From: Antedon mediterranea
Taxonomy: Eukaryota; Echinodermata; Crinoidea; Comatulida; Antedonidae
NCBI RefSeq assembly: GCF_964355755.1
Contig: NC_092677.1
Location: 3,663,001-3,727,000 of the forward strand
Direction: 5' to 3'
Length of the DNA: 64,000 bases
Positions within the stretch are counted from its first letter, which is position 1, and each line of letters opens with the position of its first letter. The translations under genes were made by a program, and so were the position numbers. A model generated the notes under the pieces. The model ran no database searches. It had not been told where the DNA came from and was given only the letters and a program-made list of their open reading frames with translations. This document shows, piece after piece, positions 8,046-32,599 of the stretch.

Positions 8046-8080
8046 CTCTCACCTCCATTGCTGCCAAGATCTACAATCTT

Positions 8081-9662: not shown

Positions 9663-9892
9663 GCTTACCTCAGAATTTCTGAATCTAATTAATTAATGTT
9701 TAAATTTAGTGTATCCTTGAGTTTTCTTCCAGAGGATGAAAGTACCATGGACTCTAACGATCTGCAATCTGAACGATGAACGAACTTTTCCCCTTTCCAC
9801 GATGCGTTACTATTGTCAATTGTTATGATGCCGAAAGTGAACTCCTGACATATTATTTCATTCATAAAACATATCCAATTCAATTTGTACAA
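9663..9892 (-). pseudogene. family A exon-1 remnant
   Basis: Minus-strand open frame whose central part parallels exon 1 of the intact family A gene at 11683-13023: an ITxxN-like start, a basic middle, then LSSSGRKL against LSSSGKKF. A splice-donor-like CTGAG/GTAAGC lies at 9663-9669, the equivalent place, but a stop precedes it in this frame. No matching exons 2 or 3 are visible downstream, so it is a fragment. The similarity is modest and needs a profile alignment. Confidence 0.45.
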
Positions 9893-10320
9893 TGTTATTA
9901 CATTTTCATTTGTAATGGTAATTTATAATTTATTAGAATTCAATATGTTTTGCAGATGATGTTCATGGGGGTGGGGGGGGGGGGGTTGTGCTCAACTGCG
10001 CGTGCAAACTTAAAAATCGCATAGTTTAACACCAAAATTCTTCCCATTGTAGATGTTATTTGAAGACGTATAATAGGCCTAGTATTTCGTATACTTGGTG
10101 ATACTTCTCTAATTCTACAGCAGAATTACATTGTACTTATATTGTACCTTGTTTTGTGCAATTTCGCTACGACATTTCTAAAAATAGAACATTACTAATT
10201 GATATTGCCGGGAGCCAAATCAACTGTCAAATACGGTAAGATGTAATATTTTTGCCATCTTACTATAATTCACCAAAAACGTGTTATTGTCTGTCTGTCG
10301 TCCGGGTTTATTCAGAGACT
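9893..10320. other. no gene seen
   Basis: AT-rich non-coding stretch with a G-homopolymer around 9967-9986. I see nothing else that can be supported. Confidence 0.5.
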
Positions 10321-10324
10321 TAAG

Positions 10325-10480
10325 GGGTCGCATGGTCTTCAAACTTATTTTATTATTTAATTATTAGTGTGGGAGTTTTGAAGAAAGAACGAGTTTGCGT
10401 TCGTTAGGTCCTCAAATCTTGAATGTTTTTAATTGCTTCGATCGAGCTGAAACTTGTGGAAAACAATAATTATATGGATA
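10325..10480 (+). repeat. dispersed repeat (ATCGAGCTGAAACTTG type)
   Basis: Shares an ordered set of short blocks (CTTCAAACTTA, GAACGAGTTTGCGTTCGTTA, ATCGAGCTGAAACTTG) with 10795-10925 in the same orientation and with 28715-28880 in the opposite orientation. Copies flank the family A and B genes, but the repeat has no coding capacity. Confidence 0.6.
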
Positions 10481-10794
10481 TATTTATTATGTATGCAAGA
10501 AAACAATACTGAGGAGGAGGGCGCCAACCAAGGTCATGCAATGTCAAAGGTCAGGGTAAAATTTAAAAATGGGTCTAATTCATCTGTTATTACAGTATGT
10601 ATGCAAGGTGCAACAACGCGATGGTGAAAGTTTTATCATAGTAATTTTCATGCAATAATTCCACTACAAATAATAGATGAATTGTGCAAAGTAACGATCT
10701 ATATATAAATTGCGGTCCATCTATCCCTGAATTAAGTGCGCATGCGTAAACTAAATAGGTGCGCCATGGATGAGATTTAGACTCTTCCCTGAAA

Positions 10795-10925
10795 ATAAAC
10801 TTGGTGGGCGGAATGCAGCTCAGTAAGAAAGAACGAGTTTGCCTTCGTTATGTCGTCAATGTCAAATCTCAACATTTTCAAATTAGGCCAACTTCGATCG
10901 AGTAGAAACTTGGGTAAAGTATAAT
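10795..10925 (+). repeat. dispersed repeat (ATCGAGCTGAAACTTG type)
   Basis: Second copy, reading ACTTGGTGGGCGGAATGCAG, then TCAATGTCAAATCTCAACAT, and ending GATCGAGTAGAAACTTGG. The minus-strand copy near 28.8 kb matches it closely in the CTCAACATTTTCAAATT segment. Confidence 0.65.
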
Positions 10926-10934
10926 CCGTATAAG

Positions 10935-11175
10935 GCCTACCGTATTTATTCGAATAAACGCCCTGCTTTGAATAAACGCCTCCCAAGAATAAACTCCCTC
11001 TAACATAATTTTGAATAAACGCCACGCCCCATTGTTACTGTATTTTATCATTTCTCGATATTAATTGTGTTATGCCTTAATTAAATAAATATTTTTTCCA
11101 AATCTGATGGGTTATTTAATTCTCCATTACACCCAAAAAATAAACGCATTTGTTTATTCGAATAAATATGGTATA
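10935..11175. repeat. GAATAAACGCC-type repeat
   Basis: Short irregular repeats of TTTATTCGAATAAACGCC and variants, ending TATTCGAATAAATATGGTAT. The outer parts, ACCGTATTTATTCGAATAAA at the left and its complement at the right, form inverted ends. Similar sequence occurs at 14920-15366. Confidence 0.6.
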
Positions 11176-11339
11176 TAGGGCGAGTATGAATCTGATTTTA
11201 AACTACATTTGAAACCCCGAGTATACTTGCTCCTAGTAAGTGTAAATTCAGATGCCATTCTGTGATACTATAACAATTTCTTTGGTTTAGTTTACACGCT
11301 GATTATAGAAGCGTTACTGTTTTAAATGCGTGATTATTT

Positions 11340-11660
11340 TATTCTTTTCCTTTTTGATATTGTAAGGGTGTTCATCCCAAGGGTCGATGTTGACAGGTCA
11401 CAGGCAACATTTCAGCAGTATACGAACTGCTAAAACTGTGGTATCGCTTGAATATTTCACTTTACACATTTTTTTCATTTGTGCAGGATAATATTTATTC
11501 AAACATAATCGTGTGACAATTGTCTATATTATTAATAATATTTATCAACATATCATCCTGTACAAATGTTGTTTGTTTTAAATTATCACCACCCACCCAC
11601 CACCATCGCCGTCGCCGCCGCTGCCGCCCGTCCACCTCCTCCTTCTCCTCCTCCTCTTTA
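11340..11660 (-). repeat. 3' flank of family A gene, duplicated at 28373-28640
   Basis: Non-coding sequence downstream of the minus-strand family A gene. It includes a CCT/CCACC microsatellite (about 11588-11658) and the segment GACAATTGTCTATATTATTA. The reverse complement of both is found directly downstream of the plus-strand copy (GGAGGAGGAGG at 28385 onward). The gene was therefore duplicated with its flank, in inverted orientation. Confidence 0.8.
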
Positions 11661-11682
11661 TTACTGTTAATTAAGCGGTCTT

Positions 11683-13023
11683 CTAGTTAAAGTGTTGTTC
11701 TTTTTCAACTAGAACTACAATGAGCATAGTATTAGCTTTCAAACCGTGTTTAATATTCTCCCATGCGTTATAAACTAAATCAGCAAATCGGGGAGACTCT
11801 GTCCAGACGAACATGATCGATTTGTCCGACTTCTTTATCGCTTTCTTCGTTGCATTTTTTAACTCTGCAGAATATAAAAAGAGAATCTTATTTTGTTAAC
11901 ATTTCAACACAACTTCTTTGATGAAATCACAAAAAATATGTAGGCCTATAGCAATATTTTACAGTGAAATTACAAAATATAGTTTTGGTACCGCAGTAAA
12001 TATGCCTCTACGGTAAATGTGTCTATTTTGCTTCTATCACTTTCAAACGCAATGTGCATACCTTTAAGGTTCACTTCCAGGCTTTTTTTTACATCATCTA
12101 TGTTCTTTCTTTCTAGCCATGTAACCGACATACACACCGAAACAACCGCCGACTTATCTGTAAGTTTGAAGTGAGCTTTGGAAGGGGAATACTTGATTTT
12201 AGTTTGAGTTTCCAGTTTTGCATCGGGTAAGAGCAAGAGTAACACCTCAAAGCTATACAATAAAAAAGAGTTAAATTAACAGAGGTATGTGTTCACACGC
12301 ACTAGAATTAAGCGTTCATTAACTGAGTTAAGCTCATCCGAAAACTCTAAAGTTATTATTATACAACTTGGACAAGTGAGAAATAGTAATATGTTCCCAT
12401 CTGATTTTCAACAGGGGTATATCGGATTAACTTGTTTACGGTTTTGTGTTAAAAAATCCTAAGGGACGCTTAAATAGTTAGTCTCACTCGCTTTGACAAG
12501 ATAATGTGTATTTTTTTTAAGTAAAATTCAACAATACTGTTAAACTTAGTTAATTTCCTTGGCAGCTAAAAATAAATAAATGTCAACGATCAACACACAT
12601 TTCTTATAGAAAATCAATTATAAAAAGAACGAAAATGACAATTTGTTGCTAACGTTTAAAAAAAGCATAACAAAGCAAGAGTTTGTCTTACCTGAAAGCG
12701 GCTTTTAATTGAATAGAAGTTCCCGTGGAATTTCTGGTCTTTAAAAACTTCTTTCCAGAGGACGACAATTGATCCTTAGTAAGAAATGAGCTAGTGACTA
12801 GTAAATTGACCTTCATATTCTCTTTAGAATGCTCATTTGCTGGTGTGATCTTATACTCACCTAACTTAACAGTAAAGTGTGGCCCACTATAGATTTTTCG
12901 GGGCTTGTACTCTTCGGGCGGCCTTTTGCGGCGGCGCCGCTTTTTTGTATTAGACTTACTTTTAGACTTGCGTTTTTGAGTTTCTTTCGAAAATATGAAA
13001 TTATTACATCTTTTGGTATCCAT
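11683..13023 (-). CDS. unrecognised three-exon gene, family A (intact copy)
   Basis: I do not recognise this protein. Exons 13023-12692, 12252-12062 and 11864-11683 have GT/AG borders and compatible phases, giving 234 codons. Exon 1 encodes a strongly basic KKRRRRKRPPEE stretch (about residues 25-40, like a nuclear localisation signal), then HFTVKLGEYKIT and LSSSGKKF. Exon 2 encodes LLLLLPDAKLETQ and VCMSVTWLERK. Exon 3 encodes SIMFVWTESPRFADL and ENIKHGLKANTMLIVVLVE. A second copy (21838-28372) keeps all three exons with the same splice phases, supporting the model. The start Met is about 35 bp downstream of a TATA-like box. Short introns (439 and 197 bp) suit a compact recent gene. Function unknown. 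Confidence 0.65.
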
Positions 13024-13049
13024 CTGGTAATACTGAATCCAGTCGCGGT

Positions 13050-13130
13050 GTCACCATTATATAGACAGTGTTGAACAATCGGAGCCAATCAACTTTAAAT
13101 ACGTTATGACGTCGTGATCGTAAGGTGACG
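13050..13130 (-). promoter_or_regulatory. TATA/CCAAT promoter of family A gene
   Basis: Read on the minus strand: CGTCATAACGTATTTAAAGT, then GATTGGCT (CCAAT-box complement, 13084-13091), then CACTGTCTATATAATGG (TATA box near 13056-13065), then the ATG at 13023. The same order and spacing occur on the plus strand at 21745-21840 ahead of the second copy, so this stretch is conserved between paralogues although it is non-coding. Confidence 0.65.
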
Positions 13131-14104
13131 ATTGAAACCAGACAAAATATAAACCCAGAACAATATCGATATAATATCAACAACAATAATACTATAATAG
13201 CATAATATAATGGAATAATTTTCCCGTTTTAGCAATGTTAATATTTACATGCGGTAGTAATCTAATACTAATTAGATACAGTAATAATCGTGTCGTGAGG
13301 CAGACTGACTTTTTCACTTGACTGAATGCAGTGTACAAAAGTACTTAGCATTGATAAATAGCCGAGGCTGTGTGAAAGGGGCTTTAAATTAAAAAAAAAA
13401 AGATGTAATGCAAAAGAGGACTATAAAGTTGACCACTTCATTTCAAATGTACCATATTTAAATATCATCACTCTTTTGTACCATGTTATATATAGTCATT
13501 AATTTAGAATAAACATTGATTTTGTTTACACTAAATTAGTAGCGTTACCAAATGTAACACTATTCGTATTCGTGTGACTTATTGGCCCGGTCATAATCAT
13601 TGTGAAACTGGTTAATACTGTGCTGCTTAGAATAATTAATCTTGATATACATAGGCCTAAACTCAGTTTAAAAAAAAATTGTTTATTCATAGTGAAACAA
13701 AACAATCCCGCAAACATCGGAATCTTCTGATCAAACTTTATAACTGACTGACGGGAGGCATTAGCTGATGATGGATGATGATAATATTAATTGATTAGAT
13801 ATTCAGAGCCATCAATTAGGCTAAATAAAGATTGGCTCTGCTGGATGATATTTGAATCAGAGCGCCCTCATGGGCAGGTCTATTTATCATCACCCATGCA
13901 TGATGATGATGTATGCTCGGATGATATAATTATATCAATATTCAAATAATATATAAGGCCAAAGCCGGCCATATATATAAAAAGCCGCAGTTACGGCATT
14001 GCGTTCACGGATTTTAGAAAGTCACGTGGGGTGCACACCGGCCATCTTTGGGTCCAACTATGCTTATGTAGGAGTATCGAGTCGAGTCATTTGCTTTTAA
14101 AATG
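13131..14104. other. no gene seen
   Basis: AT-rich intergenic DNA with ATGATG-type simple sequence around 13765-13925. Short open frames are not supported by splice sites or repeats. Confidence 0.5.
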
Positions 14105-17100
14105 TATAATAGTACAGGAAAACTATGAAATGTCGTTGAAAAAATTGCAACAGAATTTATTTCACCACAATGCATTTCTATAAGGTCCCTATATGAACAT
14201 ACTAAAAGTCTAGAAAAATCCAGGTAGGGGAAATAGGTTTTTTTAAACAAAATGGCCGCCAATGGCGAAAATGCCTAAAAAGGGACAAAAAAAACATAAA
14301 TGATAGATCTAATTACCACTTTATAACAGTTTTTACAAAGGTTTATATATTTCTTTACAGTTTCAAAAATCTGAACTACAATATACACATTATTTTAAGT
14401 GCTGTTAATTAGAAAATGGCCGAAAAACAAATGTTTAAGTATCTTATAGATATATCCCTATTGTTATAATATATAAACGCAGTCCTTCCTATGCTTAATG
14501 CATAGGATTACGGTGTCTAATAATAAATCAGTTAATTTACATTTGTACTGTTATAACAATATATTACAACATTGGTGGTGCCAGTGGGGAGGGGTATAGG
14601 GATAGGAGATCATGGGAAGGGTGAGGGAGTCTGTCCCCCCCCCCATCCCCTCTCCCCAATTGGCTATTTTCGGGAGTATATGTAGACAATATGATGATAT
14701 TTCCTAATATGAAACAATACCCCATTGAGTGCTGTTTCAAGGATTTTCATTTTTAAAAGTGATTAAAATTACCCTTTACCGGTATAATATTGTCGGAACT
14801 TCTGGGTGCCCTCCAATTGATGGCCCAGCCAATTGATGCTAGCTGCGCTCTCCTCCCCCCCCCCCCCTCCCCCTCATCGGGAAAATCCTTGCCCCATCAC
14901 TGGACTACAATCTATTACCGTATTTATTCGGATAAATGCTACATTTAGAAAAATCGAATAAACGCCCCCCCCCCCCCATAGGACATCATTTGGAATAATC
15001 TACGCCACTGCACCCGTCCCCCGCCCCCATTGGACATCATTTTGAATAATCTACGCCACTGCACCCGTCCCCGCCCCCATTGGACATCATTTTGAATTTA
15101 TTTCCTCGAATGTACGCCCCGCCACATGCATACAGTATTATATACACAATATTGTATTTTAACACATCTCTATTCACTGAATGACATGATGGTGTTGTAT
15201 TTGTTCATATCTAAAGGGTGTATTTATTTGATTATACATGTTACCGTACCACATTACACCCACAAAAATAAACGCCTCTCCGAATAAACTCCTCACGACG
15301 ATTACACGCCCCCACTACCCTCCTTAAAAATCAACCGCCAAGGGCATTTATTCAAATAAATGCGGTAATTTCACTTTCATCTTGTCAGTATCTCATCTTC
15401 CATCTATTGGTAGGGAATTGAGCATGTGCTGATGCCGTGGCATTCTTAAAAAATAGTGGAGCAGCAGTCAAAACCATATTCTGCAACTGCAATTCATTTT
15501 ACTACAACCTTATTTACAGGTACATCTAATCAACTTTAATAGTTTCTCTGGTGCTGGTAGTAAATTTGTCATCAATACTTTCCATCCCTAGTCTGTGGGT
15601 TGAAGAGTATTTTCTATCCAATGCTATAATACCTGGTAATAAAGACTCACGAAATGAAATTTTGCAGCAAGGGAATAATAGATTTGCTTTTTGCAACTTT
15701 CTCAAAGAAAAGTAGGCTGTCTAAAGTCCCCATTGACTTCCCTCCATATATACGGTAGCTACCAATGTCAAATTCCTGATGCAATGTTTTCTTTTTTTTT
15801 TGGAAACCGTTTGGTTTACAGAATTTGACATACAACTCCAACTGTGATGTGATGATTTTTAAGACCAACACCTTTTCCTAAACCAAATTTACTTACGGCC
15901 CATAATTATAGCCATTAAACACAAGAGTTTACTTTGCCTTCACATAAAGTAACAAACATACATGGTACATAATAAATGTCTTGAAATGTTACTGTTTCGG
16001 TCCAAGAGGTTTGATGTAGCAGTGCTCCCCCATTGATAACATACATTGGGCAGTGAGATGAAGGTTTCTGAGTAGTCTAGCAGTGTGTATGGAGTCAATG
16101 GAGTAAAAGAGGGCTGCAGGAAAAGTACAAGGTTCTTTTTCAACAAATGATGCATTGTGTATGACTGTCTCACATAGCCATCAATGATGAAATAGTATAT
16201 GTGAGGGAATGTGCACTGCTTCTCTATTGATGAATATGGTTGATTTTGACCCATGTGTAATAATTATTATGTTCTTTCCTCTTAAATTAATATTCTGTCA
16301 CGGTTGCTTCATTCATTGATTTAACCGTATGTTCTCGATGAGGGAGCACTGTGAATGCATGTAAAGTCTTTCCTTGGTGTGAAGCTCTGTAAAAATCAAT
16401 TTGCTTTTTATACATGGAATTCAGGGATGTGATACTACATCCCATCTATTTGGTATAGGAAAAGGTGTTAGTCTTAAAAAGTCATAACACCTGGGCAGTA
16501 GTATGCTTACAAACTCTGTAAAACCAAACGTCTCCAAAAAAAAAGAAAGAAACCATCGCATCAGAGGAATTGGCATTGGTAGCTATATACTGTATGGAGG
16601 AATACGTTCAGGGAGAAAGTAGCAAAAAGCAAAACAGCACTTGAAATAAAGTCTATTCCCCCAACAACAAATGCTGCATGTCTATTACCATGGTACAGCA
16701 GTGGATAGAAAATACTCTTCAACCCACAGACTAGGGGATGGAAAGTTACAAATGGCGTGATGTGTCCATTGACGATAAATTTACCACGAGTACCACCGTT
16801 TGTAAAAAATACCACAGCATCAGCACATGCTTAATTCCTACCTATAGACAGAGGATGATAACTGGACAATGAAAATGAATGGATTAATAGATTCTAAGAT
16901 TGTATAATTCTATTGTTGTGACAGTACAAATGTAAATGAACTGTTTTATTAGACACCGTAGTCCTGCATTATGATGCATAGGCCTACGTTGTCTATTACT
17001 ATAACCGTGGTGATATCTTGATACTTAAAATGTGTGTTTTTGCTGCTAAATAGCACTTGAATTAATATGTATATTGCAGTTTAAATGTTTGACAGTAAAG

Positions 17101-17315
17101 AAATATAAAAAGCATTATAAAAACTGCTATCAAGTGGTAATTAGATATACAATGTTTTTTGTTCATTTTTAGACATTTTTTGCCATTGACGGCCATTTTG
17201 TTTAAAAAAACCTATTTCCCCTACCTGGACTTTTAGTATGTTCATATAGGGACCTTATAGAAATGCATTGTGGTGAAAAAAATTCTGTTGCAATTTTTTC
17301 AACCTTTTACTGATT
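14105..17315. mobile_element. 3.2-kb decayed palindrome (foldback element or inverted duplication)
   Basis: The outer arms pair in inverted orientation: 14110-14250 with 17160-17310 (for example AGGTCCCTATATGAACATAC and its complement), then 14480-14575 with 16895-17000, 15378-15445 with 16800-16855, 15580-15625 with 16697-16745, and 16020-16045 with 16325-16350. The axis is near 16.18 kb. The left arm has extra C-rich and GAATAAACGCC-type sequence (14.6-15.37 kb). Some minus-strand frames are open for 75-104 codons near the axis, but I recognise no domain. The old divergence suggests a long-dead foldback transposon or an inverted segmental duplication. Confidence 0.7.
14920..15366. repeat. 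GAATAAACGCC-type repeats in the left palindrome arm
   Basis: Several irregular copies of TATTCGGATAAATGC, CGAATAAACGCCCCCC and TTGGACATCATTTTGAAT, two of the last type in tandem (about 15000-15090). It ends ATTTATTCAAATAAATGCGG. It has no partner in the right arm of the palindrome, so it probably inserted or expanded later. Confidence 0.6.
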
Positions 17316-17449
17316 CTGAGCATATCTTTCCTGTACTATAACTTTCACAAGGCTTTAAATATCGAATGTAATATCAAAACAATCAATTTGTTTAAAGGTT
17401 TTTGTTAAGATAATAAAAAAATTATAAAGTTACTGCGAACATGATTTTA

Positions 17450-17552
17450 AACAAATATGGTAGTGATGGCAACATGGCATCAACATGTCCATATATGGCC
17501 ACATCACTTTTTTGTCACATAAAATTTGATAGTGTAGTCAGAGCTTTAGATT
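17450..17552. mobile_element. MITE family 1, half copy
   Basis: The right half of a short hairpin element: AAATATGGTAGTGATG, TGTCCATATATGGCCACATC, TTTTGTCACATAAAATTTGA and the end TAGTGTAGTCAGAGCTTTA. Full copies elsewhere in the window are about 150-165 bp. Confidence 0.7.
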
Positions 17553-17828
17553 CTGTAGTACTAGCTAGTAGTAGAGAGGGCTTGGCCCTAGACTAGGCCT
17601 AGTTCTAGTCCACTGTCCTCCAGCTAGCTAGGTCCAGGCTAGGCGCATGTTATTTTATTGTTATGGAAGCTCAGCTGCTGAGGGTTCCGCGCGTGGTGTG
17701 AAAGCTTGGTCTGTCTAGTTTTTAAAAGTAGGCGCTATGTATGTAATGTAATTAATAATAATACTGTCTGAACTATATTAATAACTTTATTTATACCTAT
17801 TAATAATATTAATATTAATTATTTTTAG

Positions 17829-18885
17829 GACAGGAATCATGGATGAACAGAATGAAAAAGAACCTGCTGTGCTAAGCCCCCTGGGAGGCCAAATGATTAA
17901 AGTATGTCTCTATTCTTTCTGTTTATCGGTGGATCCAAGATGTTTGAAAAAGGTGCAGGGGCTTTCATCATAGAAAACAATAATAAACAAATCTTTGGAT
18001 ACTAAGTTATTGCTTAATGAAGTTTTTAATAGTCTGATGACAACTGTCATACACTTCATACAATGTTGTACCCCAATATTGCCCATGCAAATATAAAAAT
18101 AAAATATTTTATTAAAAAAAAAAATTAAAAAAAACATTCAATAAGATTTTTAACATTACCGTATATTCATGTACATATAATTATCTTATAAGATAAGTTT
18201 CTGTATCTTTGTATAACAGTAATTTGTTATTTTTCAGAGATAGTGCTGAGACAGAGGCAGTGTCTGTATTAACAAGTTTAGGGCGTAAAAGAAATTCAAA
18301 TGTCAGTCTTTCACAGGATTCTCCCGATGAAACAGAAGATACGCAGCCAAAGACAAAAAGGTGATTCATTATTGGGGTTAATACTGTACTGTACTCCGAA
18401 AATTTAGTTTTCATAGAATTTAGTATCTCTGGAGGGGAGAGAGAGAGCTGGTTTTTATTAGAAACCGCGGGGAAAAAAGTGTTTAATTCTTAAGATCTGT
18501 CTAAACTTTCAAACTAGTTCGACAAAAAAAAAGTGTGATGTGCCCAAATATGGTAGTGATATGCCCAAATATGGTAGTGATATGACATCATGTTCACATG
18601 GTCACATCACATTTCTTCTGTCACAAAGTTTGATAGTATAGACAGAGCTTTAGACGTTTTGATTTCGAAGTACACAATCACACCGAGTAAGCTGGAAATC
18701 ATTTTTATCTTTATTAAGGTATTTGTTTTTATTTTAGAGATTTAATGTAAGCCTATTTCAAAATGACACAGAAATGCCTTATTTTCACAAAGGCAACTGC
18801 CGAAGAATGACCGCTCTCAACGTTGTGAATATATTGATAGAAAAACAACGCTTCACGTGTATTTTGCATCTACAACTACAACAAG
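17829..18885 (+). pseudogene. family B gene, decayed duplicate
   Basis: Parallel to the intact gene at 30087-31588. Exon 1 follows the same TATTTTTAG acceptor and starts ATGGATGAACAG (17839) but diverges after about 12 codons. Exon 2 (18237-18360) is nearly identical, with DSAETEAVSVLTSLGRKR. Exon 3 (from 18738) has the same acceptor, but one base is missing early (GATTTAATGTAAG against GATTCAAATGTAAG), giving an immediate stop. Similarity then continues for about 130 bp and ends near 18885, where a retrotransposon tail begins. The copy cannot make the full protein. Confidence 0.8.
18493..18656. mobile_element. MITE family 1, full copy
   Basis: Hairpin element with ends AGATCTGTCTAAACTTTCAAACT and AAGTTTGATAGTATAGACAGAGCT, in the second intron of the decayed family B copy. 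The internal AAATATGGTAGTGATATG unit is tandemly doubled. The paralogous intron also carries a member of this family at 30745-30875, so the insertion probably predates the gene duplication. Confidence 0.8.
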
Positions 18886-19160
18886 ATATGATGAACGTTA
18901 AATATATATATTTTATAAGACCAGTTAAGATCAGATAAAATGGTTTAAATAGAAATTGTAGCTTTGTTTTCTTTTATTTATTATTAGTTTATGTATATTT
19001 TTTTTCTTTTTCGTATTCGTATTTAATGTTATATCTTGGGGTGGGTCTAACGTCAAAAGTCTTTCTGACTTATATGACCCTTCCCACATGATTACTTCAT
19101 TGTATTTATTATCCTGTATTTTATTATATTGTGGAAATAAATTGAAATTGAAATAAAACC
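18886..19160 (+). mobile_element. L2/CR1-like 3' tail fragment
   Basis: Begins where similarity to family B exon 3 stops. It ends in TATTATATTGTGGAAATAAATTGAAATTGAAATA, a 3' untranslated end plus short tandem tail of the type seen at 4570-4622. No coding sequence remains. It plausibly truncated the family B duplicate. Confidence 0.5.
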
Positions 19161-19614
19161 TATCATGTGCTAAAATTGAAAGTGACGTTCCAATGGGATG
19201 TTTTAATAATTGTGCATAAATGAACGAAGGTTTCAATCCAACTACATTTTTTTTCTCTATTTGTGATATGTTATTCTGATACTGTAGTTCTTTAGAGATA
19301 TTTATCACAAAAATAAATTCTGTTCTAATTTTGTGTAGGTATAAGCCTACCCATTGACCGGACTATACGCCCAGTAGTAGTGGTACTACCATTTACTGGC
19401 AAATTGCCGTCTTTAGTGTCAGAGGACGGCATTTTTTTTTCTATTGCTAAGACCGCCAACCTAATATTTTTTTTAATGGTACGGTAATATACTTATGAGA
19501 TATATAAATATATATCATAATAGCCGGGTATAAAGGAAGATATCTGAACGAACAATAAATTGCAATGAGATCTGCCTGTCATTGTTGTCTCTGTTGCTGT
19601 CAATGTAGTATATT

Positions 19615-20729: not shown

Positions 20730-20905
20730 GTAAGGATCCGCAGCTGTAGGCCTATATTTGTCAAAACGCATTTCGTACGATTTAGTTTCTTTGTCAGTAG
20801 TCTTATGGCATCCTCTAGTCTATCAAACTGGCCTTTGTATTTTCTTAAATTTTGAATTTCTCTACCAGTTTTAGATGTATTTTCCGCCAAAAACATGAAA
20901 AATTA
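20730..20905 (+). repeat. direct duplicate of 19615-19815
   Basis: Second member of the pair, about 1.1 kb downstream and roughly 85 percent alike by eye. The minus-strand open frame over it contains LRKYKGQFDRLEDAIRLL, which I cannot assign to a family; it may be a remnant coding exon of a mobile element. Confidence 0.7.
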
Positions 20906-21744
20906 AGATTAACATTAATATAAAAAAAAAGACTTTGTTGTTGAACACTAACTTTATTTGTTTGTTCTGTAACGGTTACTCTAAGACAACCGTATTCGAT
21001 TTGAATTCTTCTGGAATCTTCTCGTCGTAAGCCTGAACTGAGGCCTATCAGCGCAACATCACAAATTAATGAAGTAATGTCAGGGGTTTACTTTCGGCAT
21101 AGAAGATTAAATTTGGTGTTCAATATAAATGGACATTTTTATTGAGCATAAAATAGATAATCTAAAATAATAGCAAAATAAAATATATTGTTATTAATTT
21201 CCTATTTAGCACTTTTCAAAAATATGTTATGTTTGTACATACCGTACACTTTTTAGGTACGTATATAAGATTTGAATATTATGCATTTTTGATCGGACGG
21301 GTAGCACCCAACCGCCCCGCCATGCACGTGACTATGTTTGAATGAAACGATTTTAAAACGTGTATACATTTAAAAAGACGAATGTCATGCCAGTTACCTA
21401 AAATTGCCCGGTTGGAAAACATTGTAAATGCTTATTAATATCTTCGAATCGATCCTCACAACAATTCACTAACCGTATAGAAGACTATTGGATTACTAAT
21501 TTTTAATTTTAAACATGATTTTAGCTGCTGCTCAAAATTATATAGGCCTATCCTCCTTTTAAGTAGTAGCTTCACATAGCAGTGGTCCTTTGTATCATTC
21601 ATTTGTTAAGCTAAACATATTTATATTAAACAAATTAACCACATCAATTTTGGTTCCATCAAAGAACCATTCAACCGGGCAAATTATGCCACAGGCACGG
21701 GCGCGCACAGGCATTGAACTGATTTTTGTTTGTTTTTTTAAATC
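20906..21744. other. no gene seen
   Basis: AT-rich intergenic DNA upstream of the second family A copy. I found no supported coding segment or RNA gene. Confidence 0.5.
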
Positions 21745-21837
21745 GTCACCTTGCGTCATAACGTATTTGAAAGTTGATTGGCTACCGATTGTTCGACACT
21801 GTCTATATAATGGTGACACAGCGACGGGATTCAGTGT
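21745..21837 (+). promoter_or_regulatory. TATA/CCAAT promoter of disrupted family A copy
   Basis: Plus-strand counterpart of 13050-13130: TGCGTCATAACGTATTTGAA, GATTGGCT (CCAAT-box complement, 21776-21783), CACTGTCTATATAATGG (TATA at 21803-21810), then an ATG at 21838. Promoter order and spacing survive although the gene body is interrupted. Confidence 0.6.
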
Positions 21838-22000
21838 ATGTACGCATATTCACAAAATCTAGTACCTTTAATTTTATATAAAGAAAAACAAGGAAAAAGA
21901 AATACAAAAGAGCGATGCCGCCGCGAGAGGCCGCCCGAGGAGGGGCGCAAGCCCCTAAACGGCTATATTGGGCCAAATTTTACTGTTAAGTTATGTGATT

Positions 22001-22665
22001 ATTTTGCTAGACTTACAAAAACTAAATTTTTTATAACTATATCAGGTCCTAATTTGTGGAATCATATCCCACCAAATATCAAAACGTCAATATCATTATT
22101 TACTTTCCGAAAAAAGTTAAAGAATCATTATATATCTAAATATTATACTGCTTAGTTAATATGCTTATTATCATTATTTATACTCATATACTATTTGTGT
22201 CTTACACAAAATATTAGTTGTTGTTTATTATTGCAATCTTTAATCTATACTATATATAATGTATATATAGTATATACTATATATATACTGGAATTATAAT
22301 TTATGTATACATATTTTTTTTTCATTTACCAATATCGGTAGTTATTTCATTTATAATTAATATGAAACTATTGAAATATAATTTAAATAATTTTTATAAA
22401 GAAGATGTTAGTTATGTTATTATACTGTAATTTTTTATCCTAAATTATATAATTATATATTCTAGGTTATTTTTATTTTTTTAGTAATGTGTTTTGTTAT
22501 GGGTCCCTACGAGACAAGTTTTTAACTTCTAGAAGGGATCCATGATAATAATGACTACCAATTACTGCTTTATCTATGTTCACTTTAATATCTTTTTTCT
22601 ATTTTGTATATATTCATTCATTATTATCTAAATAAATATTATCTGAATCTAAATAAATATTATCT
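22001..22665 (+). mobile_element. CR1/L2-like 3' fragment inserted in family A exon
   Basis: Encodes the typical C-terminal block FITISGPNLWNHIPPNI then FTFRKKLKNHYI, a stop at 22153-22155, an AT-rich 3' UTR, and a two-copy terminal repeat of GAATCTAAATAAATATTATCT. It splits family A exon 1 sequence, in frame with it upstream, so the open frame 21838-22155 is a gene-retrotransposon chimera. Breakpoints are uncertain by a few bases, and no clear target duplication is seen. Confidence 0.8.
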
Positions 22666-22824
22666 GAAGATCACACGAGCAATTGAGCATGCTGGTGAGA
22701 ATGTGAACGTCAATTTCATATTCACTTATTTAAAACCATTTCAAGATATGAAATTGTCGTCCTCTGGGAAGAAGTTATCGGCCAAGAATAACGGGGCACC
22801 TTCTTCTCTAGAGTCAGAAGCCTT
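22666..22824 (+). pseudogene. resumed exon 1 of disrupted family A copy
   Basis: The second half of exon 1 after the insertion. It keeps the LSSSGKK motif and a good GTAAGAC donor in the same phase as the intact gene (AG/C across the junction). Listed separately because it is the clearest sign that the insertion split a real exon. Confidence 0.7.
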
Positions 22825-23142
22825 GAGGTAAGACAACATTATTACTTCTGCTTTTAATATGTTTTTTTTTTGCTATGGAAACCTTCAAACAATAGCCCGT
22901 TTTCCATTCTCAATCATTTATACGGATCAGGTGCCGTTTTCAGCCACCTCGACTTATATGGACTATACCATTATAAAAAGATGGGAGAATAGGGGTGTCC
23001 CATTTATTAATTGAGTGTGTTAATGTGTTAAAATACTGCTGCTTTTGTTCTTTTGTTTAGTGCATTATGTTTCAGCAACAAAGCGAAAACAACTACGCCC
23101 TGCATGCTGTAGAATTAATTTCAGTTTTCAAGTTAATACAGT
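22825..23142. other. start of expanded intron 1, no gene seen
   Basis: AT-rich intron sequence up to the microsatellite tail of the L2-like element. Nothing else is supported. Confidence 0.5.
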
Positions 23143-23145
23143 ATA

Positions 23146-23181
<36 letters not shown>

Positions 23182-23334
23182 TTGTATAGCGCACATTTAT
23201 ACAACATTTAATATTATAATCAGCGGCGCTTCACATCAATTAGTATCGTAACATTCTTTGAAATATAGTGCTTTTAAATGTTTTTTAAACTGATTATAGT
23301 CGTCTAAGTGCTTAATGTGACTTGGTAATCTGTT

Positions 23335-24108
23335 CTAAATTTTGGGTCCTGCTACGGCGAATGAACGGTCAGCAAATGTCTTTCGTTTAGTTCGTGGGAT
23401 TGTCAGGTTATAATTGCTGGCGCTTGAACGAGTACGGCGAGAAACATTCCGGACAGTAAGAATATCTCTCAGGTAACTTGGAGCGGAACCTTTAAGCGAA
23501 AGCCATACAAGACACGCTATTTTGAATTGATATCTATGAGACATCGGAAGCCAGTGCAAGGATCGCATGGCGTTAGTTGCACTGTCATACCGACCTTTCC
23601 TGACAATTATTTTCGCAGCTTGGTGCAGTAACCTCTTCATTGGAGCAAGGGTATTAGCAGGTAGACCATAATACAATGCATTGGCGTAATCAATATGTGA
23701 CAGCACGAGCGATTGAACTAGTTGTTGGCAAAGGTCCTTGGAGAGAAATTTGCGGATTTGACGAATATAGTATAAATTAACAGCTATCGTTCTGCATTTA
23801 TCACGTATGTGGTTCTTGAAAGATAGCTGGTCGTCGATATTAACACCAAGGTATTTTACAGATGAACCACGTGGTATTCTGTCCTGACATACGATGATAT
23901 GATCTTTCTCGCATTTCAGGAGTTGAGCTCTGCTTCCCAATAGTATGAACTCTGTTTTTTCACTGTTCATTTTTAGTCTGTTGGACTTCATCCAGTCGTT
24001 GATGGATATGAGGCACTCTTGTAATTTGGTGATTGTATTTTCCATACTAGAACTAGAATTTGGATTAAATGAATCATACACTGAGTGATCATCGGCATAT
24101 CCCATCAC
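23335..24108 (-). pseudogene. L2-like RT C-terminal half
   Basis: Longest surviving frame of the L2-like element: GYADDHSVYDSF (catalytic YADD), WMKSNRLKMNSEKTEFILLG, YLGVNIDDQLSFKNHI and the helical C-terminal domain with ALYYGLPANTLAPMKRL and LHWLPMSHRYQFKI. The premature TAG sits in the conserved tail motif, and coding similarity continues another 100 bp to 23236. Catalysis would need the upstream RT half, which is out of frame. Confidence 0.85.
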
Positions 24109-24434
24109 AGAAATATCAAACTTACTGATATGATCTTGTAAAGTGCTGGCATAATTATATGGTGTATAGAACTGGACCGCATATACTACCCTGAGGTACA
24201 GAGAAGGACAAATTGGCTGTCTCCGAGTTACTTTCGCCGATTGTTACGTTGGCAAATCGAGGACGAAGGTAAGTATCAAACCAGTTCAATGCCGCATTGG
24301 CCACTCCGAATTTGTTCTGCAAAACGTCGAGGAGTACTTCGTGGTTCACTGTGTCGAAGGCGGCTGACAAGTCTATACATACCAGCGCAGACACCCTTTG
24401 CAGCTCCATATTCCAGAGTACGTCATTGGTTAAC

Positions 24435-25813
24435 TTAAAGTGGAGCTCCACCCAGAAAATTACTATTTTTCATACATTTCAACTATTATTTAAAAATATC
24501 ATCCCTTATACTTCATATTTGTTTGAATTTTTTTTCAATGAGTACGATTTTCTTGAAAATCACGCCTTTTGGCGTTTTGGGGGGATACCTTGTAATTTCC
24601 TATTCTTTTACATGCAAAAGGGGGGTATATTTGAATAATCCTAAAAAATTCATTTCTTCACCAAAAAAAAAAAGTAAAATATCTATTAATGTAATTTTTC
24701 CAGATCTTTCTATTTCTGGTATTTTTATCACGTATACATTGCGCAATTTTGCGTAAATAGACACTTTCCCCCGTTCGTGTCCAATTGGGTTTTTTATTTT
24801 GCTAGGGAGTACGATCACGTGACATTTTTCACAATCACACTACTGCAGCTGCTGGCGATCTGTTATTTTGTCGCGATGTTATTTTTGACGGGCGAAAAGT
24901 ATTAAAACATTCTGAATGTGACCCTATTATGTTTCACAGTGTAATAATGTGATTATGAGACTATTACTAAAATGTCAAATTTAACGAGATTTGAGAAAGA
25001 CGTGGCTATAAATTCAATAAAGCTAGGCCTAGGCCTACTAGAGTGTAGGTATGTACCGATGCTGCTTGGCCTCTAGCTGGGCTAGGCTGACAGCAGTGAA
25101 GTTTGTTTTGCTGGCACCCGACCTTGGCCTACCCATGGGCCATGATAGGGTGCCTGAATAGTTGCTTTTCAGTCAGGTCTAAGCTTGCACATCTCTTTAC
25201 TACTCTTGTTCTGTATGCTATAGGATTTTGTGTTTCACAATTCTTAATGTGCGAGAAAACCCAGGAACGATAAATGGGGCGAAACGACCATGAATACATA
25301 GGCCTCTAGACAAAAATTCTAGGCTAGCTAGGCTGAGCTAGGCCATGGAGTATGGCTGGGCCTAGCCCTAGCTTAAAGTTAAAAAATCTTATTATTATGC
25401 TGTTGTTGTACAGTGAAAATCATGAGGTTACATGTAAATTAAATACTGACATTCTTATCGGAAATATTACTTAGGCCTAAACAAATCGTATTAATTGTGT
25501 GTATAAAATTTATTCCCCATTTTTCGACACACAATTTACCAAAGGGGAGACATTTCATCAATGCGTTGACCGGCGACTAAAACGCGTCAGTCGCTAAGTG
25601 TAACGCGTTTTGCGACGTATTGTAAACTAATAACCCCTAAGTTACTGAAAAACTGTAATGTGTTAAAAAACACTATTTCCTGACCGATTTTTTAGAAATG
25701 AGTTTTTGGAAAATATTTCCGTATTTTCCTGTTTTTTTTTATGTAATTACTTTCAATTAAACATACTTAAACATGATATAAGCTGAGAAAGTCTGAGTGT
25801 AGCTCCACTTTAA
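24435..25813. mobile_element. TTAA-flanked 1.37-kb non-autonomous transposon (piggyBac-like)
   Basis: Ends TTAAAGTGGAGCTCCAC and, inverted, TTAAAGTGGAGCTACAC, with TTAA at both outer edges. Removing it and one TTAA restores the L2-like frame across a conserved TETALVKLTNDVL segment, which proves an insertion. No transposase is encoded. The interior has a run of AGGCCTAGGCCTA and GCTAGGC words at 25020-25380. The TTAA target preference is the piggyBac hallmark; family membership is inferred from target and ends only. Confidence 0.88.
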
Positions 25814-26830
25814 CCAAAGCCGTCTCTGTGCTAAAACCTTACCGATAGGCAGATTGGTACGCCGGTAATAAGGTATTGTTTTCAACATAAGCTATATGAA
25901 TTGGTTCAAGCATGCGCGTTCAACCAGCTTGGATACGAAGGACAGATTGCTTACTGGCTTATAATTTCTGAGGATACATTCAACACCCTTCTTTTTTATA
26001 AGCGGTTTTATAACTGATATTTTCCATCTATGAGCAAATACGCCGTTACACAACGAGTTGTTGATCATCCTTGTAATAAGTGGTAGAAGTGTATCCAGAT
26101 GCTGTTTCACCAGTGTCGACGGTAGGGGGTCAGTGGAGCAGGTTGTTGGTTTTGCGCATAATGATCAACTTCCTAACATCATCTTCGCTAACTTCCTGAA
26201 ATGCAATAAATTCATTTGCCATTTGCCGTTCTTGTTCATACAAAGGGAAGTGTTCCAATTCCTCTCGTATTTTCTCTATTTTGCCCATAAAGTAAGATAT
26301 GAAGTCGTCTGCTAACTGTTTATCAGTTTCATGTGGTGGAAGTGGGTTATTTTTACGTCTACCAATGAGCTCAAACACGATCTTGTAAAGCTTTTTTGAG
26401 TTGTTGCCAGCTTCTTTGATAGCACCATTAATGAATTCGTACTTGGCTAAACAAAGATAACGTTTGTATGAATTGCGTATAGATCATTGTAAGCTGACCT
26501 ATTTTCGTCGGTGGCAGACTTCCGTAAGGTCTTCTCAGCACGACGAAGTTGCTTCTTCAACACATTAGCCTCGTCATCAAACCAAGGTAACGATCTTCTG
26601 ACAGTGGTAGTTTTCTCAACAATAGGAGCATGCTTATCCAGAGCAGCAAGTAGTTGAGTGTTGTAGTGATTTGCCAAATCGTCGATATCATCGATATTCG
26701 TTGATGATATAACTACTTGAGACAAAGCTTCATCAAAGTTCGTGTGATCTATTTTATTTATCTTTCGAAACTTTTGGCGGTAACATTTCGGTTTTGGTCT
26801 CGATAAAATAGTCTCTACAATATAATATAG

Positions 26831-27646
26831 CTATTATGGCTTTTTTTCTATATAATTTTTTAGGAATCCCTTCCCTAATACGGATATTAGGTGGATATTA
26901 TTGAATAATTTTTAAACTGATTTATTGTTTGTGTATCTACAATCGTTTCATTTATTTACATTTAACATTAAATGTATCAGGTCAGCAAAACAAAAATACA
27001 TAATATTATTATGTCTAATAATCTATTACCCGTTTGTTTCTGTATCTACAATCGTTTCATTTACATCAAGTAGGCCTAGTCGTAATTTACTATAGTACAG
27101 TCAAACAAGGTGATCAGTAAAACGAAAATACATATTATTATGTCCAATTAATCTATTACCCGTTTGTTTCTGTATCTACAATCTGACCATTTAATGACAC
27201 AAAATGAATAGCATCATTGAAGCGTATAGAAACTTTAATGGAAAATGAATCTTTCACTGAATAAATAACATCTCATCAACAGTCTTTTTAGTTTAATAAC
27301 ACATCAAAATTGTTAGGCCTATTTATAATCGGGTTAATTATTATATACTAGCACAAATGCCACGACATTTATGTCGATTATCGGAAATATTTCTGTTATG
27401 AAGAGCAATCAAACCGCTTTTTTGATTTGATAAAAATATTGTAAGGAATACGTGTGTAAAGCATGATAGAAGATCTCTTCTTATTAAAAATCAGAATGTA
27501 TTCTCCATTGCTGTATGGCTACATTGCTGTATTATGTAAACTTATTTAATTTATTAATTAATATCTTGGGATCAGATGGGTTAATGAATGTTTAATTCTA
27601 GTGCGTGTAAACATAGCCCCGGTATTTAACTCTTTTTTTATTGTAG
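26831..27646. other. rest of expanded intron 1
   Basis: AT-rich, with a direct duplication: TTATTATGTCTAATAATCTA then CCCGTTTGTTTCTGTATCTA near 27005-27050, and again near 27135-27180 with CCAATTAATC. No gene seen. Confidence 0.55.
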
Positions 27647-28372
27647 CTTTGAAGTCCTACGGAGCTGTTTCGGTGCAAAATTTCGGGAAACCGAAACTGA
27701 AATAGAGTATTTCCCTGACGGAGGCTCCAAAGTTGACTTCACATGCAGTATAAATATCATCAAACTGGGTGTGTCGGTTACACGGAGTATAGAAAAAATG
27801 AGATTAAAGAACAAGAAAAGAAAGAACAAGATCAGAAAAGACTCTTTAAATATAGGCATAGATGATTATGAAACAACACTGACAAGGAAACTTAAGGGTA
27901 CGCACATTGCGTTTGAAAGTAACAACATTTTATTTAGAAACATTATTTATACCGTAGGCATATGCCTATTTACCGGTACCAAAACTATTTTGTATGTGTT
28001 TTGTATGTGGCCTAATTTCACACGCTGAAATTTCACTGTAAAAAAATGCTATATGCCTATATACTACTGCACATACTTTTTGTAATTTCATCACCGAAGT
28101 TGTGTTGCAGTTTTAACGAATAGGCCTAATATGTTCTATTTTTTTTTTATTCTGCAGAATTACAAAACGCAACAAAGAACGCGATGAAGCAATGGAACAA
28201 ATCGATCATGTTCGTCTGGGCAGAGTCTCCCCGAATTGCTGATTTAATTAATTCCGCATGGGAGAATATTAAGGAAGCTTTAAAAACTAATACTATTCTC
28301 ATTGTAGTTCTAGTTAAAGAGGAGCATTGCTCAATGTTTGATAATAATAAACGTAACAAGAAGACATCTTAA

Positions 28373-28640
28373 TTAACAGTAACAAGGAGGAGGAGGAGGA
28401 GGAGGAGGAGGGGGTGGCGGCGGTGCGGCGGCAGCGATAGTGGTGGGTGGGTGGTGATAATTTAAGATAAAAACATTTTTACAGGATATAAATGCTGATA
28501 AACTTAATATTATTAATAATATAGACAATTGTCACATGAGTATGTTTGAATAAATATTATCCTGTACAAATGAAAACGTGTGTAAAGTGAAACATTCAAG
28601 GGATACCACATTGCTGTCTGTGACTTTTCAACTTATACGG
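28373..28640 (+). repeat. 3' flank of disrupted family A copy
   Basis: Inverted counterpart of 11340-11660, including a GGA microsatellite at 28385-28412, GGTGGCGGCGGTGCGGCGG, GGTGGGTGGGTGGTGATAAT and ATATAGACAATTGTCACATG. Confidence 0.8.
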
Positions 28641-28714
28641 AAAAGAGTAAAATCATTTTTTGAGTTTATTATCTCACTTCAGTATGATTTGTGAATAGGC
28701 CTACTTTACAGCTA

Positions 28715-28880
28715 CCATACACTTTAAAAACAGCGGGTTTCTCGTATCTATATCTATATCCAGTTTCAGCTCGATCGGAGCAATTTGAAAATGTTGAGAT
28801 TTTACCTTGACATTGACGACCTAACGAACCAATTCCTTCCAAATCCGAGCTGTTGCACCCACCAAGTTTGAAAACCGTGC
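28715..28880 (-). repeat. dispersed repeat (ATCGAGCTGAAACTTG type), inverted copy
   Basis: Reverse complement carries TTTTCAAACTTGGTGGGTGC, TTCGTTAGGTCGTCAATGTC, CTCAACATTTTCAAATTGC and GATCGAGCTGAAACTGG, in the same order as 10795-10925. Confidence 0.65.
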
Positions 28881-30076
28881 GACCGACACTGACACGCAAT
28901 TTTGCTTAATTATAGTAAGATTGGAAAAATAATTGGCCCCCACTCCTAATTTCTGAGGGAAAACAATTATTAGGCCTATTAATATTGTAAGATATATTTT
29001 ATCGAACTAATTTCTAGTACTGGTAACCAATATATTCAATATTACAGTACAACGTCTAATTCACGAACTCAATTTCATTGCGGTTCGTACGCGTCGATAT
29101 ATCTGGGCTGTATCAAAGTTACAGGGACCATGAGTGTGAATCAAGTTACACTGTACTTACTATAAGGACTTAAGGACGCACTTGTCTGGCCTGGCGGTGT
29201 CCTTTTGTACATTTATAAAGTAATATATTTAGAAGTTGGCACAGCTCACGCCTAGCTCACGCGTCGACATCTGGGTCCCATGCTATACTACATCCAGGGA
29301 CCAAAATGTGAATCAAGTTACTTACTAAGGACAAGGACTGTCCTGTAAGAATCGGCAATTCATCATTCGCAATTTACAAGTCTGCCGACTGTCCCTTTCG
29401 TTGAGTTGTTTATAATTATTACTCGAACGCCTAGAATGTAGAATATGTAGCTAATAATATCGCGCACACTCGCATCATGTACAACAAAAAGTAAACGCTT
29501 TACTGTGTACACCACATAAACAGAGGGAGAGAGAGGGCGGTCTTCGAGTTTCGGATTAAACCAAAGATAGTGTATTTAGTTAGTAGGTCTATTTTTATTT
29601 GTTCTTTACATTACAATTTATAAAACGCACAATTCAATGTCACAATAATATTGAATATAATGTTTCATTTTCTATTATAAGATTAGATTAGTACAGATAA
29701 AGAACCTCTAGGCTAGGCCTACTAGGCCAGGGTTTCTATACTAGGCCTAGCCTAGGGAGGGGAGGCCCAGGCCTAGGCTATTCTTTATTGGTAGCTGTAA
29801 TGACCCGAGGAGGTTGTTGTGGTATGCGAGGCGTACTTTACGTCGAGGTACAGTGGGAATCCGGGACGATTCGGCCCACTTTTGGTGGTGCGATAATGTA
29901 GTACTGTAAAAAAAAAAATCAATCCAAATGTTGTAACTCTACATGGCTTTGGTTTTCCATGTGGTAGAGCGCCGCATACGTCGGGATGTTATATAACTTT
30001 TTAAATTTCCAATGCAAAAATCACGGAATGCTTATTCTTCTGATATATATTCTTTGTTTAAATGCATTATTTTTAG
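28881..30076. other. upstream region of family B gene
   Basis: Contains an imperfect tandem duplication of about 170 bp (GTACGCGTCGATATATCTGGG at 29088 and ACGCGTCGACATCTGGGTCC at 29260, each followed by GTGAATCAAGTTAC), and a cluster of CTAGGCCTA/CCTAGG words at 29707-29785. The decayed family B copy has a similar CTAGGCCTAG cluster upstream (17580-17645). The family B first coding exon follows an acceptor at 30071-30076, so a 5' non-coding exon probably lies here, unplaced. Confidence 0.5.
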
Positions 30077-30086
30077 GAAAGAAATC

Positions 30087-31588
30087 ATGGATGAACAGCA
30101 TGAAAAAGACTCTGCAGTTTTAGACCTAGGAGACCCATTAAAAAAACGGAGTGATTCTGTTGGTGAACATATTCTTTATAGTGGCCAACAAATTCAAACA
30201 ACGTTAAACTTGAGGTACATCATCTCAGCTCTTGTTTATTTTTATATGGTGGATCCAAGCTGTTTGGAAGAGAAAAGGGAGGGAGCGAAAACCTTCCTTA
30301 GGACTTTCAAAAACATCTTTGGTACTAAGTTATTGCTTATTAAAATATTAATAACAAGTTTGAAATAGTGTGATTTAAACAACAGATTTAATAAATTGTT
30401 TACTATGCTATTTTTAATATTATATATACGGTGTAGGCCTTCACACTACAATTTCCCAGCTATATGAATAGCAGATAGGTTTCTTTATCTTTTTAATGCG
30501 TTACCTTTACAGGGATAGTGCTGAGACAGAGGCAGTGTCTGTATTAACAAGTTTAGGACGTAAAAGAAATGCAAATGTCAGTCTTTCACAGAATTCTCCC
30601 GATGCAACAGAAGATACACAACCAAAGAAAAAAAGGTGATTCATTATTCAAGTCAAGTTAATACTCCGACAACTTAGAATTTAGTAGAGAGAGAGAAGAG
30701 AGAGCTGGTTTTTGTTAGAAACCGGAAAAAGTGTTAAGCCCTTAAGCCCTGTCTACACCTTCAAACTACATAGTTTGACCAAATAAAGTGTGATTTGCCT
30801 AAAATATTGGTTGTGATATACCCAATGGTAGTGATATGACATCATCATGTCCATATACAGTATGTGTAGACAGAGCTGCATTTGTAACTTTTTATTAAGT
30901 TATTTGTTTTTATTTTAGAGATTCAAATGTAAGCCTATTTCAAAATGACACAGAAATGCCATATTTTCACAAAGGCAACTGCCGAGGAATGACCGCTCTC
31001 AACGTTGTGAATATATTGATAGAAAAACAACACGTGACGTGTAGAAAACGGCCGTTTAGTTGTAAAGAAAACGCTGTGTTTTTAGTAGAGCTGTCCAGTA
31101 AGTGTTTATTCGAAGACATCACATTTGACGACATGACGTGGCTCAGCTCAGGGAAACGTAAATACAGTTTAACAATCAATAAAAACGGTGTTCAAATTTT
31201 ACCAAAACACAGCAGTACAAACTATGTTTTGATACGTATGTACAGAAAAAACAAATCGAATGAAAACTTTCGCTGTATAATTAGTTACATAAATGATCGC
31301 GAGGTTATTTTAAATAATCAAGTTTTAATACAGTACTATTTTATTGGCCAGCCGTCGTCATTTAGCGTTAAACCGCATGGGAATTCGAAAAACGTTACAT
31401 CGTTTAAACCAACGAAACCGTCGACAAAACGGCTGTTAAAAGAGCTTTTACGAGTTAAACCGCCGGCTGAAGCGGTACGTGAAGTTAGACGCATCGTTGA
31501 AGGCGGCGAGAAAACGAAGAACGCTTGCGGCGATCTGCCACTGGGGAAACAACAAGCGTATGACATGAACAGAAGGAAAAAGAAATAA
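30087..31588 (+). CDS. family B gene, three exons, transposon-protein-like
   Basis: Exons 30087-30214, 30513-30635 and 30919-31588 join in phase to 306 codons. Exon 1 starts MDEQHEKDSAV after a TTTTTAG acceptor. Exon 2 encodes LTSLGRKRN and PKKKR, basic and serine-rich. Exon 3 encodes HKGNCRGMTALNVVN, ENAVFLVELSSKCLFEDITF, a DDMTWLSSGKRKYSL block, PSSFSVKPHGNSKN, and ends with LPLGKQQAYDMNRRKKK. The exon 3 layout reminds me of the N-terminal part of uncharacterised invertebrate proteins, some followed by a MULE-type transposase domain; here nothing follows, so this is either a stand-alone domesticated protein or a truncated mobile-element gene. Recognition is from memory. The decayed copy at 17829 supports the splice sites. 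Confidence 0.7.
30745..30875. mobile_element. MITE family 1 copy in family B intron 2
   Basis: Starts CCCTGTCTACACCTTCAAAC and ends TGTGTAGACAGAGCTGC, with GTGATATGACATCATCATGT inside. The right arm is shortened. Equivalent position to the copy in the decayed paralogue. Confidence 0.75.
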
Positions 31589-32190: not shown

Positions 32191-32210
32191 ACCTCTCGGG
32201 CGTTTTACCG

Positions 32211-32578: not shown

Positions 32579-32599
32579 AACAGAGGAGTGGTTCTCAAA

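What the first reader, a model, noticed from the sequence alone, without database searches (positions are those of the whole stretch)
9663..31588. Cluster of two unrecognised gene families with intact and broken copies
Family A (234 codons, three exons, minus strand at 11683-13023) and family B (306 codons, three exons, plus strand at 30087-31588) each have a second copy in the same 20 kb: A at 21838-28372 (plus, split by retrotransposons) and B at 17829-18885 (decayed). Splice phases agree between paralogues, which is good evidence that these are real spliced genes. I can name no domain in A. This is the best candidate in the window for something undescribed.
Basis: partly seen in the sequence, partly recalled or inferred. 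Interest (0 to 1): 0.72.

Follow-up and report, generated by a model that had tools for sequence, protein, structure and literature searches.

The report
Gene array sharing unnamed bacterial domain
The first gene family (A) is a real, locally duplicated and partly broken set of spliced animal-type genes whose protein domain is in no family library we could search but also occurs in exported proteins of a few Myxococcota-like bacteria, while the second (B) is only the front half of a known kind of DNA-transposon protein.

Summary
Both families are real and the coordinates hold. A is a three-exon gene family confined to one 118-kb array on this chromosome (C8:3,573,107-3,691,357, about 8 units). 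The window holds only its eastern end. Splice sites are conserved between units. Two units outside the window (A_3573, A_3656) differ by 13 synonymous and 0 nonsynonymous changes in exons 1-2, so the family encoded a selected protein. The window's 'intact' copy (11683-13023) is open but derived: it has lost the family signature and shows dN/dS near 1. The signature (GGsSvxSE..FE.L..C..A.LLKxE.E..Y...G..TD......G(V/I)SVTRA) is also in seven bacterial proteins. One is a rumen Myxococcota lipoprotein 43% identical over 141 residues; all whose N-terminus is held carry export signals. No Pfam, NCBIfam, PHROG or PDB entry covers the domain. A low-confidence model has a restriction-endonuclease-like strand order, but the catalytic ExK position reads SVT, so I do not file it as a PD-(D/E)XK nuclease. 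B is the N-terminal domain of a MULE-type transposase (about 31% identity to SWIM-bearing copies on C4 and C1), ending where the catalytic part should begin. B2 is broken. A is the interesting half. Function and direction of transfer remain open.

The parts
12692..13023 (-). Family A, window copy, exon 1: basic K/R-rich N-terminus, then first part of the domain
12062..12252 (-). Family A, window copy, exon 2: core of the domain; signature GVSVTRA replaced by VVSVCMSV, conserved D and C lost
11683..11864 (-). Family A, window copy, exon 3
21838..22002 (+). Family A second copy (A2), 5' part of exon 1, interrupted
22003..22660 (+). Insertion inside A2 exon 1; reads SGPNLWNHIPPNIKTS.., which resembles a non-LTR retrotransposon C-terminus (identification by eye, no Pfam match)
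22661..22827 (+). A2, 3' part of exon 1 ending in a conserved donor
23335..24469 (-). Reverse transcriptase fragments (RVT_1) in A2 intron 1
27647..27897 (+). A2 exon 2, keeps LGVSVTR signature
28158..28372 (+). A2 exon 3 with stop codon
20777..21044 (-). Scrambled fragments of another family A unit (end of exon 2 and piece of exon 3)
9671..10066 (-). Remnant of a family A exon 1 (two pieces)
3605..3652 (-). Possible short remnant of a family A exon 2 (E 0.008 locally)
30087..30214 (+). Family B exon 1
30513..30635 (+). Family B exon 2
30919..31588 (+). Family B exon 3: N-terminal domain of a MULE-type transposase, stop where that domain ends
17829..18885 (+). Family B second copy, broken: exon 2 at 18239-18361, exon 3 start 18738-18860 with 1-base deletion and truncation

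Best explanation
Family A is a host gene family, not transposon debris. It is a tandem array of three-exon genes that arise by local duplication and decay by insertion and exon loss. Its protein is one compact alpha/beta domain of about 190 residues, which also occurs in exported proteins of scattered Myxococcota-like bacteria. Shown: spliced structure, single-locus array, past purifying selection on the conserved units, homology to the bacterial proteins, and loss of the signature in the window's copy. Inferred: from the predicted order helix-strand-strand-strand-strand-helix-strand-helix-strand, the invariant acidic residues (SE, ExE, TD) and the SVTR strand, the domain most likely has a restriction-endonuclease-like core with a substituted active site and acts by binding, perhaps cutting, nucleic acid. 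The window's A, with a K/R-rich tail that could send it to the nucleus, is a fast-evolving offshoot, either decaying or taking a new role. Family B is a gene or remnant made of the N-terminal domain of a MULE transposase without the catalytic part.
For: Array at one locus in 354 Mb; the bacterial protein used as query also hits only this array. Conserved splice sites in four further units. A_3573 versus A_3656: exons 1-2 carry 13 synonymous and 0 nonsynonymous differences; the 8 in exon 1 are all at codon position 3. A_3573 versus A_3593 exon 1: 6 synonymous, 1 nonsynonymous. Bacterial relative L065: 43% identity over 141 aa, E 7e-31; further ones in G128, G265, G367, G387, G388, G389 at E 1e-80 to 1e-97. 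L065 is labelled Myxococcota by the tree tool. Export signals: lipoboxes and a Por_Secre_tail. Topology and weak matches to XisH, PaqCI, EndoMS and ASFV RPB5 at Z about 5. B: about 31% identity to MULE-type ORFs, E 5e-14; SWIM-like motif CTCPCYKYNGLCKH and weak MULE/SWIM Pfam matches in the right order.
Against: Mean pLDDT is only 42.6 and the top fold match is an acetyl-CoA carboxylase central domain (Z 7.3), under the level at which a match means much. The ExK position is SVT in every well-kept member, so a canonical nuclease is excluded. The bacterial forms are exported, which fits a surface or extracellular role as well as a nuclear one. Window A shows dN/dS about 1.2-1.7 against A_3596, which fits decay. 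No transcript data.
Confidence: 0.5

Rival explanations
1. Family A's domain is an exported surface or ligand-binding domain, not nuclease-like; in the animal it works outside the cell, for example in defence, and the array turns over as immune gene clusters do.
For: Bacterial members are lipoproteins or signal-peptide proteins, one with a type IX-type sorting tail. Array turnover. Best fold match is not a nuclease.
Against: No signal peptide could be placed on the animal units; the window copy has a basic NLS-like N-terminus. Strand order and acidic residues resemble the endonuclease core.
Confidence: 0.3
2. The animal array descends from one gene taken from a Myxococcota-like bacterium by horizontal transfer, gained introns and then duplicated.
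For: One locus in the genome; close bacterial relatives; animal rows form one group.
Against: No eukaryote protein collection could be searched, so the domain may be widespread in eukaryotes. The bacterial distribution is also patchy (7 of 386 genomes), so transfer could run the other way. The tree cannot be rooted.
Confidence: 0.35
3. Both families are plain transposon debris.
For: The region is full of LINE and BEL/Pao-like sequence; B is MULE-derived; several A units are broken.
Against: A exists at one locus only, with introns, conserved splice sites and 13:0 synonymous to nonsynonymous changes. B exons are more conserved than introns, dN/dS about 0.38. True in part only for B.
Confidence: 0.1
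4. B is a domesticated MULE N-terminal (probably DNA-binding) domain kept by the host, for example as a repressor or transcription factor.
For: 306-codon frame open, exon constraint against B2, only distant (about 31%) from the recently active elements.
Against: 12 differences are few; no orthologue known; could be a long-lived truncated copy.
Confidence: 0.4

Closest known systems
Exported Myxococcota-like proteins (L065 JAEEML010000072.1, L100, L101, L102, L106, L107, L109), unnamed
   Same: Whole domain aligns end to end; invariant S..SE, E, C, ExE, D, G(V/I)SVTR; 28-43% identity to A_3573
   Different: Bacterial, intronless, with export signals and acidic linkers; no animal K/R-rich tail or CSMFDN end
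PD-(D/E)XK (restriction-endonuclease-like) superfamily, e.g. XisH, PaqCI, EndoMS, RPB5 N-terminal domain
   Same: Predicted order of strands and helices; conserved D in the second core strand
   Different: ExK replaced by SVT; model confidence low; no sequence match
Acetyl-CoA carboxylase central domains (AC3-AC5)
   Same: Best fold match, Z 7.3 over about 125 residues
   Different: 8-13% identity, low-confidence model; no functional link
Mutator-like (MULE) transposases of animals (PMC6446971)
   Same: B aligns over 216-225 residues with the N-terminal part of MULE-type ORFs on C4 and C1
   Different: B lacks the DDE and SWIM parts; intron next to the domain lies at nearly the same place but in another phase

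Membership tests
PD-(D/E)XK nuclease superfamily (for A) | Catalytic (D/E)xK on the third core strand | tested here: not met
   Position reads SVT in all well-kept animal and bacterial members
PD-(D/E)XK nuclease superfamily (for A) | alpha-beta-beta-beta-alpha-beta core | tested here: inconclusive
   Order fits, but pLDDT 42.6 and Z about 5
Glyco_hydro_80 (for A) | Match over Pfam's curated score, shared by relatives | tested here: not met
   One unit at 21.5 bits under a cut-off of 25; none in its paralogues or bacterial relatives
Undescribed domain shared by A array and bacterial exported proteins | End-to-end alignment with shared signature GGxS..SE / ExE / TD / G(V/I)SVTR | tested here: met
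   the window copy of A itself lacks most of it
MULE transposase (for B) | Homology to the N-terminal part of a MULE-type ORF | tested here: met
   About 31% identity, E 5e-14
MULE transposase (for B) | DDE catalytic domain and SWIM zinc finger | tested here: not met
   B stops before them; MULE ORF matches nothing else in the 164 kb examined
MULE transposase (for the C4/C1 ORF) | SWIM and MULE domains | tested here: inconclusive
   Pfam SWIM E 0.035 and MULE E 0.1, both under cut-off but in the expected order; SWIM-like CxCx..CxH read directly
MULE transposase (for B) | Terminal inverted repeats and target-site duplication | not tested
   -
Transposon debris (for A) | Many dispersed copies with neutral substitutions | tested here: not met
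   One locus only; 13 synonymous to 0 nonsynonymous

The most novel reading that the evidence does not exclude
An undescribed protein domain shared by exported proteins of Myxococcota-like bacteria and an animal tandem gene array, built on a nuclease-like core with an unusual SVTR active or binding site, moved between kingdoms and expanded and diversified in the animal as an effector family.
Probability: 0.3. Interest if true: 0.65.

Novelty: new variant of a known kind. Interest (0 to 1): 0.47.

Why it matters
A domain absent from Pfam, NCBIfam and PHROGs but conserved between a eukaryote's duplicating gene array and bacterial exported proteins is a ready target: it can be named, its fold solved and its role tested in the bacteria. 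If the transfer reading holds, the array is a clean case of an acquired gene under birth-and-death evolution. The B half is ordinary.

Tried and rejected
Pfam, NCBIfam, PHROGs and PDB sequence searches with A: nothing reproducible; the GH80 match (E 2e-4) is absent from its paralogues and taken as chance. Viral contigs by protein, by alignment and by the GVSVTRAM pattern, phages and plasmids: none. Structure of B exon 3 from a single sequence: pLDDT 32.9, not used. Foldseek and VIA-align on the L065 model: matches only suggestive. Literature: no paper mentions VSVTRAM, none on the Pfam accession. Phylum-wide search around the bacterial genome returned only itself; searching its relatives worked. 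A search of the bacterial genome for a second copy gave a weak match in an unrelated long frame (translation), not followed.

Full report
1. The observation. Both gene models are in the sequence as described. A (minus strand, 13023-11683) splices into 234 codons with GT/AG borders and phases 2 and 1; B (plus, 30087-31588) into 306 codons, phases 2 and 2. The second copies are real: A/A2 share 74% identity over 760 bases (E 1e-139), and B/B2 give a best match of E 1e-88. A2 (21838-28372) is cut inside exon 1 by a 0.65-kb insertion and its first intron holds reverse-transcriptase pieces. B2 has a 1-base deletion at the start of exon 3 and ends after about 40 codons of it.

2. The window is the end of a larger array. 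The window lies at C8:3,663,001-3,727,000 of a 354-Mb genome in 18 contigs. Searches of that genome with A as DNA and as protein, with the better-kept unit A_3573, and with the bacterial relative all return one place: C8:3,573,107-3,691,357. I read the 100 kb west of the window and found these units: A_3573 (three exons), A_3581/3575, A_3602/3596, A_3593/3584 (no exon 2), A_3656 (no exon 3), the remnant at window 9671-10066, window A, window A2, and scrambled pieces at window 20777-21044. Exon 1 ends in a conserved AG|GTAAG-type donor in the units read, and exon 2 begins TAG|(C/T)TT(T/C)GA. The pairing of distant exon 1s with exons 2-3 (A_3581/3575, A_3602/3596) is inferred from order and strand.

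3. Selection. A_3573 and A_3656 differ in exons 1 and 2 by 13 synonymous and no nonsynonymous changes over 140 codons; the eight in exon 1 are all at third positions. A_3573 and A_3593 exon 1 show 6 to 1. These protein sequences were held by selection until recently, even though A_3656 and A_3593 now lack an exon. The window side of the family behaves differently: window A against A_3596 has dN/dS 1.15 in exon 2 and 1.74 in exon 3; against A2, 0.66 and 0.68. Its branch is the longest among the animal rows. Its frame has nevertheless stayed open, which 50-110 random substitutions would allow in only about 13-3% of trials, so it may have gone on coding while it changed. A stretch just upstream of the conserved part in A_3573/A_3656 shows changes at all codon positions, so the true start of those proteins is not settled.

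4. What the domain is. Pfam, NCBIfam, PHROGs and PDB sequences give nothing that holds up. A degenerate-pattern scan of 84,980 prokaryote genomes returned one relative, a 256-aa lipoprotein in a rumen 'Deltaproteobacteria' assembly (L065), 43% identical to A_3573 over 141 residues, E 7e-31. The contig is bacterial: intronless frames, cysteine-rich lipoproteins alongside and a tRNA-Thr. Profile searches of its relatives found six more. All those with a complete N-terminus carry a lipobox or signal peptide; L102 also has a secretion-tail domain. The lipobox and signal-peptide readings are by eye. The family is patchy, 7 of 386 genomes. Columns shared by well-kept animal and bacterial members include S, SE, E, C, L, ExE, Y, D, G, SVTR, L and KL. 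Window A has lost most of them.

5. Fold and mechanism. Fold matches are led by acetyl-CoA carboxylase central domains (Z 7.3), then XisH, PaqCI, ASFV RPB5 and EndoMS at Z about 5. The second group belongs, from general knowledge, to restriction-endonuclease-like folds. With the conserved TD and the SVT at the ExK position I read the domain as probably endonuclease-like with an altered site. This is inference. An exported binding domain is a serious rival, since the bacterial members are exported.

6. Family B. The best matches outside the array are two 855-874-codon frames on C4 and C1 (about 31% identity over B's last 216 residues, E 5e-14). They lie in copies 99.3% identical over 6.2 kb. 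They carry a SWIM-like CTCPCYKYNGLCKH and weak MULE and SWIM Pfam matches in the right order, as animal MULE transposases may (PMC6446971). B ends where the transposase's N-terminal part ends. Between B and B2 the exons differ by 5 synonymous and 7 nonsynonymous changes over 78 codons (dN/dS about 0.38), against much greater intron change. So B may have been used as a protein, but as a piece of a known kind.

7. Verdict. The strongest new fact is the bacterial relationship of A. What cannot be said from here: whether any unit is transcribed, whether the domain is common in other eukaryotes, which way it moved, and what it does.

Noticed in passing
C8:3,573,885-3,574,592 vs C8:3,655,804-3,656,506 (L032, L040): Synonymous sites of exons 1-2 differ at about 14% while intron 1 between them differs at 3% of aligned sites; not explained.
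   Followed up: partly
window 1-2617: 68-bp tandem array, 38 copies, 97% alike.
   Followed up: no
window 32208-32583: 23-bp tandem array, 16 copies, open in several frames, just downstream of B.
   Followed up: no
window 6177-9312: Non-LTR retrotransposon with endonuclease and reverse transcriptase, frame broken in two places.
   Followed up: partly
C4:32,146,308-32,152,500 and C1:8,936,060-8,942,252 (L029, L030): Two MULE-type copies 99.3% identical over 6.2 kb, so probably moved recently; upstream, repeated short frames of the kind DDDFTIVISDDD that look like SUMO-interacting motifs.
   Followed up: partly
C8:3,645,506-3,649,524: Long frames resembling a BEL/Pao retroelement polyprotein inside the A array (by eye).
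   Followed up: no
window 12288-12342 (intron 1 of A): About 55 bp matching places on C2, C4, C5 and C6 at 84-87%: a dispersed short repeat in the intron.
   Followed up: no
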